The translations under genes were made by a program, and so were the position numbers. The notes below the pieces were generated by a model that had not been told where the DNA came from, searched no databases, and was given only the letters and a program-made list of their open reading frames with translations. A stretch of 64,000 nt of DNA from Chloroherpetonaceae bacterium. GTDB taxonomy: Bacteria; Bacteroidota; Chlorobiia; Chlorobiales; Thermochlorobacteraceae. The stretch spans positions 1 through 64,000 of the forward strand of contig JANWWA010000012.1 of the NCBI GenBank assembly GCA_025056565.1, written 5' to 3'. Below, in pieces: positions 15,957 through 38,348 of this stretch. Position 1 is the first letter of the stretch. Every line of letters starts with the position of its first letter.

Positions 15957-17210
15957 ATGCAGAATGACCATACAATTATTCGGGAAGATAATGCCATTCA
16001 CAGCTTTTGCGGATTGGCAAGCGTCGGCTGGCTGTATCAAAAAATTCGCAACAGTTTCTTCCTCATTTTGGGCACGCACACCTGCGCTCACTTTTTGCAG
16101 TATGCACTCGGCGTGATGATTTTTGCAAAACCGCGCTTTGCGGTGGCAATGCTGGAAGAAGCAGACCTATCCAAGGACTATGTCAATCTCAAACCCATTC
16201 TGGAAGAAATCAAGGCAGACCACCACCCATCGGTGATTTTCCTGTTTTCTTCTTGCACGCCAGAGGTAATGAAGGTCGATTTTGAACAACTGGCACGCTC
16301 ACTCAGCACGCCTGAGCTGCCCGTTTTGTTTGCGCCTGCAAGTGGCTTAGAGTTTGCTTTCAGTCAGTCGGAAGATTCTGTGTTACAAGCGCTGTTGCCA
16401 TTTTGCCCCATAGCGGAGCCGAGCGACAAGCGCGTGGTATTTCTGGGGTCAGTCAATGATGCGATTGCGGACGATTTTCGGCGCGAAGCTGAAGCGTTAG
16501 GCATTCCTGTTGCAGGCTTTTTGCCAGAAAATCACTTGCGCGACTTGCCGCCAATTGGTGCAGGCACGATTGTAGCGCCCTTGCAGCCCTACCTTGCTAA
16601 AGTCGCAATGCGTATCAGTCGTGAGCGTGGCGCAAAAGTGCTTTCCTCGCTGTTCCCATTTGGACCAGATGGCACACGTCAGTTCTGGGAAGACCTTGCA
16701 AAAGAGTTTGGCATGGCTGTCAATCTCCGTGAGCGGGAAGCAGCTGCATGGGAGCGCATCAGAAAACATACTGAGTTGCTCAAAGGGCGGCGCGTCTTCA
16801 TCACCGCCGATTCACTCATTGAGTTACCGCTGGCACGCTTTCTAAAAAGTGCAGGTGCAGAAATTGCCGAAGTCAGCAGTGTCTACATCAACAAAAAGTT
16901 CCATGCAAAAGAGCTTGAGTGCCTTCGAGGCGTGCGCATTGTCGAGCAACCTAACTTCCACCGACAAGTAAGCGATATGCAAGTCCAGCCGCCTGACCTT
17001 GTTATTACATCGCTGATGACTGCTAATCCGCTTATCGGAAAAGGTATCACGGTCAAGTGGAGTATGGAATTTGTGCTTATGCCACTTCACGGCTGGAGCG
17101 GCACAGTATCGCTAGCCGAATTGCTCACGCGCCCATTGCTGCGAAAAGCTCACCTACCTGAGTTTGATGCCTCAGTCTGGACAATGAATGCAATGCCAAG
17201 TTCTGCTTAA
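15957..17210 (+). CDS. bchN: Light-independent protochlorophyllide reductase subunit N
   Basis: A 417-residue subunit of the NB component of dark-operative protochlorophyllide oxidoreductase, which reduces the C17-C18 bond of protochlorophyllide in the cytoplasm. The three Cys ligands of the interface [4Fe-4S] cluster are visible at Cys18 (HSFCGL), Cys43 (HTCAHF) and Cys100 (FSSCTPE), in the family positions. Length agrees with the usual 410-430. It opens the bchN-bchB-bchL-MFS-bchJ-MFS block, all on the plus strand, and lies just behind a terminator, so its promoter is probably in 15930-15956 or within the hairpin region. Confidence 0.95.
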
Positions 17211-17299
17211 CCAACAAGTTACCTAGCGCAGCGCAAGGCAAAAAATGAACGCACAAAATCACCTTGCGCTGCAACGCAAACCTCAAAAGGAGAAGAACG

Positions 17300-18976
17300 A
17301 TGCGGCTAACTTACTGGATGTATGAAGGCACGGCACATCACGGCGTCGGGCGCATTGCAAATAGTCTAAAGAAAGTGCATGCAGTCTTCCATGCGCCGCT
17401 GGGCGATGACTATACGCTACCAATTCACACGATGCTGGAGCGCACGCCAGACTTTCCACATGCCACGACAAGCCTCGTTACGGGACGCGACCTTGCACAA
17501 GGCACAAACCGATTGCCCCTCACGCTTAAACAAGTGGAAGCACGCTTCAAGCCAGAACTCATCGTTGTCTGTGCCAGTTGCAGCACGATTCTTTTGCAGG
17601 AAAATTTGCAGCAAGCAATTGATACAGCCGATGTGCAGACGCCTGTAATGCTCTATGATGCCAATCCCTACCGAATGACGGAGACCGAATCCAGTGACAG
17701 GCTCTTTACGACGCTGGTGCGCCGATTTGCTAAGGCGCAGCCACTGACGGAAAGACCAAGCGTGAATTTTCTAGGGCCAATTTCGCTTGGCTTTCATGTG
17801 CGCTCCGATGTGATAGCAATGCGCCGAATGCTAAACGTGTTGGGCATTGAGCTGAATGTGATAGCCCCACTGGGAGCGAGCCTGAGCGACCTTGAGCGCT
17901 TGCCCGCTGCATGGCTGACGATTGCACCGTATCGAGAGACGGGACAAGAAGCAGCAAGGTTTTTAGAGAGAGAATTTGGCACCCCTGCCTTGCTCGAGAC
18001 ACCGATTGGCGTAGAACCGACGCTACGCTGGCTACGGAAGCTCGTAGAAATGATAAATGAAATTGGTGCAAGAAAGGGCGCCAAACCGCTGCAGATGCCA
18101 CCGCTGCAAGCCTTCTCGCTGGATGGACTCAGCGCGCCCAGTTCTCTCCCATGGTTTAGTCAAACCGCAGATATGCACAGTTTCTCGCAAAAGCGCGCAT
18201 TTGTCTTTGGCGATGCGACGCGCACGGTAGCTATTGTCAAGCTCCTGCGTGATGAAATAGGCGCACAAATTGCTGGGGCAGGCACTTACCTTGTTAAGCA
18301 TGCTGACTGGGTGCGCAAAGAGCTGGAAGGATACCTCCCCGATGAATTGTTGGTTACAGAAGCCTTCCAAGATGTGGCAAAACGCATAGAAGCGGAGCGA
18401 CCCGACATTGTTTGCGGCACACAGATGGAACGACATAGCTGCCGCAAGTTTGATATCCCCTGTATGGTTATTGCACCACCGACGCACATTGAAAATCACC
18501 TCTTGGGATACTATCCCTTTATTGGCTTTGACGGTGCCGACGTCATTGCGGACCGCATCTACACCACTGCAAAACTTGGTTTGGAGAAGCACCTCATTGA
18601 TTACTTCGGTAGTGCAGGCTTGGATGATGAGAACGATGAGAAGTCTGCAAAATCCAGCACATCAAGCATCACAGTCCCCAAAGAGGTCGCCACAAGCTGC
18701 ACAGAGAGCAATACATCAAAGCAGGAGTGTCGGTCGCAAAATGAGGGCTTCAATGCAGACGCACAAACAAAGCAATCAACGGGGACTGCCACCGAAGCAA
18801 ATGCGGCACGCACCGAAGTCGAGTGGACGGAAGATGCGCAGAGACTTCTAAAAAGCGTGCCTTTCTTCGTGCGCGAGAAAGCAAAGCGTAACATTGAAAA
18901 ATATGCAAGGGAAAATGCGCTGTGGCTCATTACGCCAGAAGTGGTGCGCAAAGCCAAAGAGCACATTGGCGCCTAG
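17300..18976 (+). CDS. bchB: Light-independent protochlorophyllide reductase subunit B
   Basis: A 558-residue subunit B. The ATG at 17300, after AAGGAGAAG, gives the family start [15 protein letters not shown]. Asp36 in PLGDDY is the unusual aspartate ligand of the NB cluster, and the CASCST motif around residue 100 is present. The C-terminal domain ([17 protein letters not shown] to the end) is the conserved small domain. Between the core and this domain is a Ser/Thr/Glu/Gln-rich linker (about residues 435-510), longer than usual. It follows bchN after 89 bp and precedes bchL. Confidence 0.95.
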
Positions 18977-19029
18977 GGGGTTCATGCGGTTTTCAGCTTC
19001 AACACTCATCAAAGAAAGGAGAATCAACT

Positions 19030-19854
19030 ATGGGACTTGTGTTAGCCGTTTATGGCAAAGGTGGCATTGGCAAAAGCACCGTGAGTGCCAACCTCTCAGC
19101 AGCGCTGGCGCAAGAGGGAGCATCGGTCCTGCAAATCGGCTGCGACCCCAAGCACGATAGCACGTTCCCGCTTACAGGAATGCTGCAAAACACCGTAATT
19201 GATACGCTCAGCGTCGTCAATTTTCATCACGAGGAGATTGAATACGAAGACATCATCAAAAAGGGCTTTGCAGGCGTGGATACAGTGGAATCAGGAGGAC
19301 CACCAGCAGGGAGCGGATGCGGGGGCTATGTGGTTGGCGAAACCGTCAAGTTGCTCAAAGAGTTCGGTGTCTACTCGCGCTACGATGTCATTGTCTTTGA
19401 TGTCTTGGGCGATGTAGTCTGCGGTGGATTCAGTGCACCGCTCAACTACGCTGATATGGCGTTCATTGTAGCGACCAACGACTTCGATAGCATTTTTGCG
19501 GCTAATCGGCTCTGCATCGCTGTCGAGGAGAAAAGCACAAAGTGCAAAGTCAAACTGGCAGGGATTATTGCAAACAAAGTCGACGAAGAGTATGGTGGCG
19601 GCACGGCACTCTTGGAAAAATTTGCCGAGCGCGTGGGTACTACAATAGTAACTAAAGTGCCCTATCACGACCTGATTCGCCGCAGTCGCCTTGCTGGCAA
19701 GACACTCTTTCAAATGGACGGTGAAGGTAAGGCGCAATGCACAGAGCCTTATCAAACACTGGCACGCAAAATTTTGAACGGGGAACTCGAACCACGCGTG
19801 CCCAAGCCAATGGGTGACCGTGAGATTTTCGACACAATTGGCGGTTGGCTCTAA
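19030..19854 (+). CDS. bchL: Light-independent protochlorophyllide reductase iron protein
   Basis: A 274-residue homologue of nitrogenase NifH that feeds electrons to BchNB with ATP hydrolysis. The ATG at 19030 follows an AAAGGAG site; the longer frame upstream overlaps bchB and is not used. Walker A GKGGIGKS is at 9-16; the homodimer-bridging [4Fe-4S] ligands are Cys97 (GSGCGGY) and Cys131 (DVVCGGF). Length matches the family. The stop is followed 16 bp later by the second MFS carrier, so translation is probably linked. Confidence 0.95.
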
Positions 19855-24315: not shown

Positions 24316-25200
24316 ATGCCAGTTGTAGAAAAGGCGACATTGCCCCAGTCATCACCAAGCCAAGCCAATGGACTAAGCGCCCCAGACAGCATCACTTCAG
24401 GGCAACAGTCTACCAAGCCACGCCTAAGAGAAGATGAACAAAAATTGCCGTTGCTAATTGGACTGGGTATTGTGTATGCAATTGTTTTCTGGTGGTTCTC
24501 TACAGCAGCAATTATCTACTTTAACTTTCAGCCTGCCTACCGTGGCATAGTGTTTGGGATTGCGCTGGCGTTGCTAATTATGGCGCTCTATGTGCTACAC
24601 GCACATCGAGAAAGCCATACAATCGGAAGCGCATTTCTGACCTTTACAGCTGGTTCAATTGTGTGGGCGTTTGTGGAAATCAGTTTCTACACAGGCTTCA
24701 TTGTAGGGCCGCAGGTGCGCCCGATTTTTACCGTTGGACCATCTCTGATTGGCTTTTTCAAAGCAATTCATCGCAGTCTCTATCACGAAGCATTAGTCTT
24801 GGGTTTGGTTGGCATAATGATCGCGCTGCTATTCAAGTCCAAAAATCGATTCGGGGCTTATACCTTCTTGATGTATTGGTTTATGCATCAGTCGGCAAAG
24901 CTCAACATTTTCTTAGGTGTCGCAAACACGGGGCGTGAGTTCGTGCCCGATACGGTGGCCGATATGACGCAATATATGACCATCGCTCATATGAATTGGC
25001 TCTTTCCATTTTCCATTACGTTCTGCACGTTGCTGGTGGCTCGGCTGTTTCAAAAAGTGAGAGAAGAGCACGAGGCATGGCGACAAGTAGGCTTTGCAAT
25101 TATCGGCACAATGGCGCTGATGGCGCTCTTGGAGCATTGGCTTTTGGTCCTGCCACTCAATCAATCGCTGTGGGATATTGTCATCAAGCGGCTGCATTAG
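24316..25200 (+). CDS. PuhE-like (DUF3623) photosynthetic complex assembly protein
   Basis: A 294-residue membrane protein with a polar N-terminal stretch of about 45 residues followed by roughly seven hydrophobic segments. Motifs agree with PuhE of purple bacteria: FWWFST at the first helix, SIVWAFVEISFYTGFIVGP, LYHEALVL, HQSAKLNIFLGVAN, then FVPDTV, and LEHWLLVLPLN at the end. PuhE acts in building the type-II reaction centre and antenna, so its presence beside chlorosome and bch genes is notable. It lies 106 bp from the divergent ABC ATPase, upstream of mreB. Family assignment from motif recognition only. Confidence 0.7.
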   Translation: MPVVEKATLPQSSPSQANGLSAPDSITSGQQSTKPRLREDEQKLPLLIGLGIVYAIVFWWFSTAAIIYFNFQPAYRGIVFGIALALLIMALYVLHAHRESHTIGSAFLTFTAGSIVWAFVEISFYTGFIVGPQVRPIFTVGPSLIGFFKAIHRSLYHEALVLGLVGIMIALLFKSKNRFGAYTFLMYWFMHQSAKLNIFLGVANTGREFVPDTVADMTQYMTIAHMNWLFPFSITFCTLLVARLFQKVREEHEAWRQVGFAIIGTMALMALLEHWLLVLPLNQSLWDIVIKRLH

Positions 25201-35747: not shown

Positions 35748-38168
35748 ATGAACACACAGAAGCACATTACGCTTGTGCTCGGCATGGAACGCTACAACGC
35801 CGAGCTATTTCAACACATCAAAGCCACACTCCGAAATCAATGTCCTTCGCTGCGCCTGCATACCTTCTTTGATAATGATGTAGCTGAGCGGCCGAAAAAA
35901 GTCGAGGCAGCAATTAGCGTAAGTGATGTGGTCTTTGTGGCACTGATTGTCTTGGATGATACGGCAAGTGCGCTAGTGCAAATGCTAAAGAAGCACCAGC
36001 CTGAGTTCATTTTTGCCTTTGAGTCGCTGCCGAACCTGATGATGATGAACAAAGTAGGGTCGTATCACTTCTCGGGCGGGAAAGGCGAGATGCCTAAGCC
36101 CGTCAAGGCACTGGGAAAAATTTTGGGCGGTGGGCGAGAAGAAGATGCCTTCTATGGCTATGTGCAGATGCAGCGTCTGGCAAATCGGATTATGAAATTT
36201 TTGCCTGAAAACTTTGGTGGCGAGAAAGTGCACGATGCGCGTATCTGGATGACCGTAAGTTCCTACTGGACAAATTCAGGCGAAGAGAATGTGATAAATA
36301 TGCTGCGTTTCATTGGCGAGAAATTGCTGCACCTGCCGCTCAAGAGTGAGCCACCACAAGAAATTAACACGATGGGCTTTTATCACCCTGACTACTACAA
36401 GGAGACTAAAGCCTTTTTCCCAGACTTGAAGCATTATCTCAAGTGGGAAAAGAAAACAGGACGCGATAAAGGCAACAAGCCAAAAGTGGGGCTGCTTTTG
36501 CCTCGCAAACACTTGCTAACTGGACAAAGCTATGCAGCAGAGATTATCTATGCACTGGAAGCACAAGGGCTGCGCGTCTATGCGTGCTACGCAATGGGCA
36601 TTGAACTACACATTGCAGTGCGGACGCAACTAAAAGAAGCAGGCGTGGAGTTACTCATCAACTTATTTGGATTTCCTTTGGTAGGAGGTCCAGCAGGCTC
36701 AACCAAAACTGGAATTGCACATCCAGCAGCATCGGAGATTTTGTCAGAGCTGAATGCACCTTACATTGTCTCGCAACCGCTCTATGTGCAAACTAAAGAA
36801 AGCTGGCGTCAGTGCGGCGTCAATCCAATTCAAGCAATGATTATCTACTCTTTGCCTGAAATGGATGGCGCAATTTGCCCAGTCGTGTTGGGAGCATTGG
36901 AGAAAGAAACGATACGGCTGGAACCTTCACGCCTAAGTCGTTTGTGCGGACTGGTAAAGCGGTGGGTGAGTCTCAAGCATAAGCCGAACAAGGAAAAGAA
37001 AATTGCAGTGGTGCTTTACAACTACCCACCGAATCAAGGCAAGCTGGGCACCGCAGCATTGCTCAATGTGCCAAAGAGCATCATCAACTTTGTGCGAGAG
37101 CTGCATCAGCAAGGTTACAACACAGGTGATTTTCTTAGTCGCTATGCCAGCCAGCCTGACCAACTTGTCCGTGACCTTGCACGCTCAATTGAAGTGGATA
37201 CGGTTACAGAGACAGCGACGCTGCAAGAATTCAATGAGTGGGTGAGCTCACGCGAACAAGACCGCATTGAAGCCCGCTGGGGGAAAGCCCCTGGCGACAT
37301 TGCAACCGTCGGCAAAGAGCGTTTCATCATCGGAGGCTTACGATTTGGCAATCTCTACATTGGTGTGCAACCGCAACTGTTTATTCAGGGCGACCCAATG
37401 CGCCTGCTCTTTGACAAGGAAAACACGCCGCATCACCAATTCGTGATGTTCTACAAGTGGATTGCGCATCGTTTCCAAGCTGATGCGCTGGTGCACTTCG
37501 GTATGCACGGCACAGCAGAATGGATGCCCGGTTTGCAGCTGGGGCTAACGGAAGACTGCTGGTCTGATGTGCTGCTGGGTGAGTTGCCACAGTTCTACAT
37601 CTATCCGATGAACAATCCTTCAGAAGCAAATATCGCTAAACGACGTGGCTATGCGACCATCATCTCGCATGCCGTTCCACCCTACGCCCGAGCCGGACTT
37701 TACAAGGAGTTTCAAGCATTGCGAGACCTTTTGGGGGATTTCGAGAACGGACGCGATTTCCCCGAACTGCGAGAAGCTATTCTGCAAAAAGCCGAAGCAC
37801 TGAACCTGAATGAGGATGTGTTACCAAGTAATGATTTTGCTGAATACGCAAGTCGCCTATCGGCTTACCTCAAGGAAATGGAAAATCGGCTCATCTGCGG
37901 TGATTTGCATGTGCTCGGCGAAAATCCCGACAAAGCAATGCAAGTTGAACTTCTCACAGAAACACTGAAAAATCAAAGCGACCTTCGGCTCTTGGAGTTT
38001 GCCGCAAACTATCTGGGCACTGAGCCATATACAGTGTTGCTCGAGCGTGCTAAGCAAGGCGACAGAGACGCAGCCTTGAAGAAAGAAAAAATTGAGGCGC
38101 TCTGCCACTACATCGTAGAAAAGTTTATCGTAGAAGACAGACCAATCACTCAGGCGCTCGAAGTCTGA
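35748..38168 (+). CDS. C-terminally truncated magnesium chelatase H subunit homologue
   Basis: An 806-residue protein of the BchH/BchS/BchT-CobN family, which binds protoporphyrin IX and Mg2+ and, with BchI and BchD, makes Mg-protoporphyrin. The N-terminal domain (HITLVLGMERYNAELF, YHFSGGKGEMPKPVKALG) and the central body (GLRVYACYAMGIE, LNAPYIVSQPLYVQTKESW, VHFGMHGTAEWMPGLQLG, PYARAGLYKEFQALRDLL) are well kept. Usual length is about 1,200-1,350; the last 400-500 residues are missing, as the frame stops at 38168 after TQALEV. No second frame downstream restores homology. The AAAAGGAGC site fits the ATG. Catalytic activity is doubtful, so it may be a porphyrin carrier or sensor. Confidence 0.85.
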   Translation: MNTQKHITLVLGMERYNAELFQHIKATLRNQCPSLRLHTFFDNDVAERPKKVEAAISVSDVVFVALIVLDDTASALVQMLKKHQPEFIFAFESLPNLMMMNKVGSYHFSGGKGEMPKPVKALGKILGGGREEDAFYGYVQMQRLANRIMKFLPENFGGEKVHDARIWMTVSSYWTNSGEENVINMLRFIGEKLLHLPLKSEPPQEINTMGFYHPDYYKETKAFFPDLKHYLKWEKKTGRDKGNKPKVGLLLPRKHLLTGQSYAAEIIYALEAQGLRVYACYAMGIELHIAVRTQLKEAGVELLINLFGFPLVGGPAGSTKTGIAHPAASEILSELNAPYIVSQPLYVQTKESWRQCGVNPIQAMIIYSLPEMDGAICPVVLGALEKETIRLEPSRLSRLCGLVKRWVSLKHKPNKEKKIAVVLYNYPPNQGKLGTAALLNVPKSIINFVRELHQQGYNTGDFLSRYASQPDQLVRDLARSIEVDTVTETATLQEFNEWVSSREQDRIEARWGKAPGDIATVGKERFIIGGLRFGNLYIGVQPQLFIQGDPMRLLFDKENTPHHQFVMFYKWIAHRFQADALVHFGMHGTAEWMPGLQLGLTEDCWSDVLLGELPQFYIYPMNNPSEANIAKRRGYATIISHAVPPYARAGLYKEFQALRDLLGDFENGRDFPELREAILQKAEALNLNEDVLPSNDFAEYASRLSAYLKEMENRLICGDLHVLGENPDKAMQVELLTETLKNQSDLRLLEFAANYLGTEPYTVLLERAKQGDRDAALKKEKIEALCHYIVEKFIVEDRPITQALEV

Positions 38169-38183
38169 GAAGGAGCATCAAAG

Positions 38184-38348
38184 ATGCTAACAGGGTTGGT
38201 GTTTCTTTGGCTGATGGGACTGTTCTCAGCGGCGGCATTCGGGCTAACGCTGTATCAATACTTCCGTTCTCGTTGGCGATATCGACACTTCTTGCCGCTA
38301 AAGAAACTCTCTGAAGAAGCGCTGCGCGATTCGTTTCGCTTAAACTAA
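38184..38348 (+). CDS. 54-residue single-pass membrane protein
   Basis: A short frame 15 bp after the truncated chelatase gene, with a good AGAAGGAGC site 9 bp before the ATG. It encodes one hydrophobic segment (LTGLVFLWLMGLFSAAAFGL) and a basic/aromatic cytoplasmic-like tail (YFRSRWRYRHFLPLKK), ending SFRLN. Family not recognised. The strong ribosome site, the clear positive-inside layout and the coupling to the bchH-like gene support a real product. It may anchor its neighbour to the membrane, but that is inference. Confidence 0.65.
   Translation: MLTGLVFLWLMGLFSAAAFGLTLYQYFRSRWRYRHFLPLKKLSEEALRDSFRLN

What the first reader, a model, noticed from the sequence alone, without database searches (positions are those of the whole stretch)
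35748..38168. BchH homologue lacking its C-terminal third
The frame keeps the N-terminal and central parts of the chelatase H subunit, then ends at 806 residues where the family normally continues for 400-500 more. The end is clean (stop, then a new ribosome site and gene), not a visible frameshift. It may be a non-catalytic porphyrin carrier, a sensor or a subunit of a split chelatase.
Basis: partly seen in the sequence, partly recalled or inferred. Interest (0 to 1): 0.7.

Follow-up and report, generated by a model that had tools for sequence, protein, structure and literature searches.

The report
Chlorophyll metal-insertion enzyme in two genes
In a family of hot-spring green bacteria, the big protein that inserts magnesium to start making chlorophyll is encoded as two separate genes far apart in the genome instead of one; the 'missing' end of the flagged gene lies elsewhere in the same genome, and in three of these species the two-piece version is the only one found.

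Summary
The ORF at 35748-38168 is real: an intact 806-residue N-terminal two-thirds of a BchH-family Mg-chelatase H subunit. It is not a truncated relic. The missing C-terminal third is a separate 465-residue gene on another contig of the same genome (G000:C3:218573-219967), with its own ribosome site. Together the halves tile a whole BchS-type subunit (806+465 = 1271 aa; C. tepidum BchS is 1271). The same break, in the same variable linker, occurs in five Thermochlorobacteriaceae genomes of three genera, despite scrambled gene order. Trees of the two halves agree, both are under purifying selection, and the active-site residues are conserved (H621/E625/Y651/Y653/E660 equivalents in the N-half, H1174 in the C-half). 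Three genomes (Ca. Thermochlorobacter aerophilum, GBChlB, one more) have no full-length H subunit yet carry BchD, BchI, BchY/Z-type proteins and FmoA, so the split pair is most likely their working H subunit. The window's own genome also has a full-length BchS/T-type H. Both halves share a rare leader element with other pigment genes. I found no earlier report in the library held. Assembly of the two proteins and activity are inferred, not shown. New variant of a known enzyme.

The parts
35748..38168 (+). N-terminal half of a split BchS/T-type Mg-chelatase H subunit (806 aa; corresponds to head, neck and the first half of the body)
37506..37508 (+). codon of His587, equivalent of ChlH catalytic H621 (E625 equivalent is Glu591, codon 37518-37520)
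   Evidence: residue roles from PMC13297055
37623..37625 (+). codon of Glu626, equivalent of ChlH essential E660
   Evidence: PMC13297055
35720..35739 (+). leader element AACATTTG followed by AAGGAG ribosome site; AACATTT also precedes the C-half gene on G000:C3 and both halves in G002 and G003
38184..38348 (+). 54-aa predicted membrane protein gene directly downstream (own AAGGAG at 38170-38175); a similar small ORF follows the N-half in G001, G002 and G003 although the rest of the neighbourhood differs; role unknown

Best explanation
This is one of two genes that together encode the large H subunit of magnesium chelatase (BchS/T type). The window gene makes the N-terminal two-thirds (head, neck and the half of the body with the H621/E625/E660 side of the active site). 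A second, unlinked gene (G000:C3:218573-219967, 465 aa) makes the C-terminal third (the half of the body with H1174). The two proteins most likely bind each other without covalent joining and form an H subunit that holds protoporphyrin IX between them; BchI and BchD drive magnesium insertion as usual. Shown: both genes exist, tile one full-length subunit with the break in a variable linker, are conserved together in five genomes, keep the catalytic residues, are under purifying selection, and are the only H subunit found in three phototroph genomes. Inferred: association of the two proteins, catalytic activity, protoporphyrin IX as substrate, and shared regulation through the leader element.
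For: C-half in the same genome, PF02514 positions 650-1089, where the N-half covers 2-663. The pair is present in G001, G002, G003 and G005, with the break at the same linker; 806+465 = 1271 aa against 1271 for C. tepidum BchS. In G003 (= GBChlB) both halves are on one 81-kb contig in the order C-half then N-half, 24 kb apart, so no simple insertion or cis splicing explains it. G001-G003 have no full-length H at E<=0.001, although full-length homologues in other genomes score far better than that, yet have BchD and a BchI-like protein, FmoA and BchY/Z-type proteins. Both halves are monophyletic with the same placement, next to BchS/T and not BchH. Catalytic residues are kept in both halves. 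dN about 0.09-0.13 against dS of 1.8 or more among same-genus genomes. Solved structures of C-terminal fragments alone (6ys9 410 aa, 5ewu 388 aa) match this half, so it can fold on its own. The rare leader element (7, 9 and 4 sites per genome) lies before both halves in G000, G002 and G003 and before PuhE, FrhB-type and DUF169 genes.
Against: No protein, complex or activity data. The window's genome and G005 also have a full-length H, so there the split pair need not be the main enzyme. The N-half of G001 and G002 carries one indel each (a dinucleotide and an A-run): probably MAG errors, but not proven. The named family genomes are metagenome assemblies. The N-half lineage has a longer stem than the C-half (0.91 against 0.47). 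The structure prediction failed (pLDDT 48), so the interface was not modelled.
Confidence: 0.82

Rival explanations
1. The N-half works alone as a non-catalytic porphyrin carrier or sensor, and the C-half has a separate job.
For: The N-half has the complete head, neck and part of the body; the two genes are unlinked.
Against: All five tested catalytic or channel residues are conserved in the N-half and H1174 in every C-half; the two halves co-occur in every genome whose N-half is not cut by a contig end; in G001-G003 nothing else was found that could supply an H subunit.
Confidence: 0.07
2. Decaying paralogue: one H gene was broken and moved, and the pieces are relics; the full-length copy does the work.
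For: A full-length copy exists in G000 and G005; indels in the N-half of G001 and G002.
Against: Purifying selection on both halves, ribosome sites kept before most of the ten genes, the split persists across three genera, and there is no full-length copy in G001-G003.
Confidence: 0.05
3. The two products are joined: protein trans-splicing (split intein) or RNA trans-splicing restores one chain.
For: Two unlinked halves of one protein is the pattern that split inteins leave.
Against: Lengths add up to a normal subunit with no extra intein-sized sequence at either end; no Rfam intron at either locus; each half has its own stop or start and a ribosome site in this genome.
Confidence: 0.02
4. Assembly or sequencing artefact.
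For: The named family genomes come from metagenomes.
Against: The same break was found in five separate assemblies with different neighbours, including both halves on one contig in reversed order in G003.
Confidence: 0.02

Closest known systems
BchS / BchT / BchH, Mg-chelatase H subunits of Chlorobaculum tepidum (CT1295, CT1955, CT1957)
   Same: Homologous over the full length when the halves are put end to end; about 44-45% identity of the N-half and 54% of the C-half to BchS and BchT; same active-site residues as BchS; BchS with I and D is an active chelatase (PMC3931815).
   Different: One chain there, two unlinked genes here; the split lineage is a separate deep branch beside BchS/T.
ChlH of Synechocystis (PDB 4zhj, 6ysg)
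   Same: Same order of regions and the catalytic residues H621, E625, Y651, Y653, E660, H1174.
   Different: A single chain there; the stretch that falls between the two matched halves is roughly ChlH 790-900.
CobN (7c6o) and HmuS (9d26)
   Same: Same class I chelatase fold family, recognised by sequence.
   Different: Cobalt insertion and heme de-chelation; far weaker match; HmuS has an insertion in domain IV, not a break (PMC12583661).

Membership tests
Mg-chelatase H subunit (BchH/S/T) | DUF3479 head plus CobN/Mg-chelatase domain over its whole length | tested here: met
   Met only by the two genes together: N-half has DUF3479 and PF02514 2-657, C-half has PF02514 650-1089.
Mg-chelatase H subunit (BchH/S/T) | Single polypeptide of about 1200-1350 residues | tested here: not met
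   Two genes of 806 and 465 codons on different contigs; hence filed as a split variant.
Mg-chelatase H subunit (BchH/S/T) | Catalytic residues H621, E625, E660, H1174 (ChlH numbering) | tested here: met
   roles from PMC13297055.
Mg-chelatase H subunit (BchH/S/T) | BchI and BchD partners in the genome | tested here: met
   BchD over the cut-off in all 11 genomes; BchI-like second hit in the genomes with the split pair.
Mg-chelatase H subunit (BchH/S/T) | Inserts Mg into protoporphyrin IX with I, D and ATP | not testable with these tools
   Needs enzymology.
BchS/T subgroup rather than BchH or CobN | Tree position | tested here: met
   Both halves fall on the BchS/T side, as a separate branch outside BchS and BchT.
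CobN cobaltochelatase | Best match to CobN, groups with CobN | tested here: not met
   CobN models score 275 bits or less against 746 for BchH; CobN is an outgroup in the trees.
Split-intein protein | Intein halves at the junction | tested here: not met
   No extra sequence of intein size at either junction.

The most novel reading that the evidence does not exclude
The split is a control point: because the two halves are made from unlinked genes and the active site is completed only when they meet, the cell can keep a porphyrin-loaded but inactive N-half and switch chelation on by making or recruiting the C-half, possibly with the small membrane protein encoded behind the N-half as an anchor. 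In an aerobic phototroph this would limit free Mg-porphyrins, which are harmful in light and oxygen.
Probability: 0.12. Interest if true: 0.78.

Novelty: new variant of a known kind. Interest (0 to 1): 0.6.

Why it matters
Mg chelatase is the first committed enzyme of chlorophyll synthesis, and how its very large H subunit closes on porphyrin is still open. A natural two-piece H subunit, in which one piece carries E660 and the other H1174, would let the two halves of the active site be made, labelled and mixed separately. It also matters for annotation: searches for full-length BchH would call these phototrophs H-deficient or list a pseudogene.

Tried and rejected
AlphaFold model of the N-half (only window and permitted-locus sequences could be used, 4 rows): pLDDT 48, discarded. 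Deciding whether G010 (another family) is split: its N-gene runs off a contig end and no C-part was found, inconclusive. Looking for a conserved neighbourhood: none, apart from the small ORF after the N-half. Small ORF in other Chlorobiales: no convincing hit. BchM by TIGR02021 at E<=1e-20: no hit in any of the nine genomes searched, so that model or threshold is uninformative here. Introns at the break: none. Literature for a split BchH: nothing in the library; the 2012 Ca. Thermochlorobacter paper is not held. Wider phyla (Chloroflexota, Acidobacteriota) were not searched for stand-alone halves. The leader pattern was written after seeing these leaders, so its presence before the halves is by construction; only its rarity and its other targets are independent.

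Full report
OBSERVATION. The frame 35748-38168 is an intact 806-codon gene with a good ribosome site, a clean stop, and a small ORF after it. It matches the BchH model from position 2 to 796 of 1271 and the CobN/Mg-chelatase profile from 2 to 657 of 1090.

THE MISSING THIRD. A search of the window's own genome with the CobN/Mg-chelatase profile gave three places: a full-length gene on contig C16 (1302-residue open frame), the window gene (profile 2-663), and a stand-alone gene on contig C3 (profile 650-1089, 514-residue open frame). The C3 gene is best started at an ATG behind AAAGGAG and is then 465 codons long. 806 + 465 = 1271, the length of BchS in the genome that I take for C. tepidum TLS from its size of 2,154,946 bases and gene order (the identification by size rests on my own knowledge). 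In the alignment the N-half stops and the C-half starts within one variable linker of the full-length proteins, with no conserved block lost.

CONSERVATION. The window's genome belongs with Ca. Thermochlorobacter aerophilum OS and GBChlB (named loci L068, L067). Of eight held relatives in its family, four (G001, G002, G003, G005; with G000 three genera) have both halves, and three (G004, G006, G007) only a full-length gene; G008 is too fragmentary. The Chlorobiaceae and Chloroherpeton-type genomes searched have full-length genes, apart from pieces at contig ends. In G003 (GBChlB) both halves lie on one 81-kb contig on the same strand, the C-half 24 kb upstream of the N-half. The neighbours of each half were not shared between the five genomes in the stretches compared, apart from the small ORF behind the N-half. 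The pair has therefore been kept through rearrangement. The N-halves of G001 and G002 each contain one small indel in a repeat; the other three are open throughout.

SOLE H SUBUNIT. G001, G002 and G003 (99, 96 and 100% complete) have no full-length H homologue, while they do have BchD and a BchI-like protein, FmoA and BchY/Z-type proteins. The GBChlB authors describe bacteriochlorophyll and chlorosome genes (PMC4161750). Either the pair is the H subunit, or these organisms lack the committed step of pigment synthesis. The window's genome and G005 keep both kinds.

WHERE IT BELONGS. In trees of each half, with CobN as outgroup and again without it, the split sequences form one clade placed beside BchS/BchT and the family's full-length gene, far from BchH. 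C. tepidum naming follows PMC9316378. The agreement of the two trees means the halves have travelled together. dN is about 0.09-0.13 with dS of 1.8 or more between same-genus genomes; some dS values are saturated.

MECHANISM. In ChlH, H621, E660 and H1174 point at the porphyrin centre, and H621, Y653, E625 and Y651 line a putative proton path (PMC13297055). The HmuS study describes the body of this fold as an N-terminal half (domains III and IV) and a C-terminal half (V and VI), with the cavity between III, V and VI (PMC12583661). The split appears to separate these halves: the N-half keeps H587, E591, Y617, Y619 and E626, and the C-half keeps H306. Neither half alone can form the site; together they can. 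Solved C-terminal fragments of ChlH (6ys9, 5ewu) and CobN (9fpc) match the C-half, so it can fold alone. From this I infer a non-covalent two-chain H subunit. Split inteins and introns were looked for and not found.

REGULATION LEAD. AACATTT a few bases ahead of the ribosome site precedes both halves in G000, G002 and G003. The combination with a GGAG and ATG at fixed range occurs only 7, 9 and 4 times in these genomes; the reversed control gives 0, 0 and 2. Other targets include PuhE (G002), an FrhB-type protein that may be the 8-vinyl reductase BciB (G003; my inference), and DUF169 proteins; close variants precede a BchY/Z-type gene in G000 and G003. The pattern was chosen after seeing the halves, so this is a lead.

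VERDICT. A real, conserved, most likely functional two-gene H subunit. The family is known; the split form was not found in the papers available here, though the key 2012 paper is not in the library. Main doubt: no biochemistry.

Noticed in passing
L081:1265-5152 (C. tepidum BchT) and BchT-clade rows of G022, G028, G009 and G012: All BchT-clade proteins examined have arginine where ChlH, BchH, BchS and the split C-half have the catalytic H1174; BchT may be a weak or regulatory H subunit.
   Followed up: no
window 15957-19854: bchN, bchB and bchL (dark protochlorophyllide reductase) lie in the window and matches exist in G001 and G002, but BchL was not found at E<=1e-60 in G003-G008 or G010, and G003-G007 and G010 show only two PF00148-type proteins each; those phototrophs may lack this enzyme.
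   Followed up: partly
G000:C1:159105, G000:C9:21689, G002:C2:128394, G003:C36:28714: DUF169 (COG2043) proteins of unknown function carry the same rare leader as the split chelatase genes; possible new pigment-pathway genes.
   Followed up: partly
window 24316-25200 and L130:925-1503: PuhE-like photosynthetic complex assembly protein in a green-sulfur-type phototroph, with an AACATT leader element.
   Followed up: no
window 38184-38348; L071:9087-9251: 54-aa single-helix membrane protein ending in ALRDSFRLN directly after the N-half in G000 and G002, with similar small ORFs in G001 and G003, none in G005.
   Followed up: partly
L093:7854-11657: The full-length H of G005 is a long-branch, unusually divergent BchS/T-side protein.
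   Followed up: no
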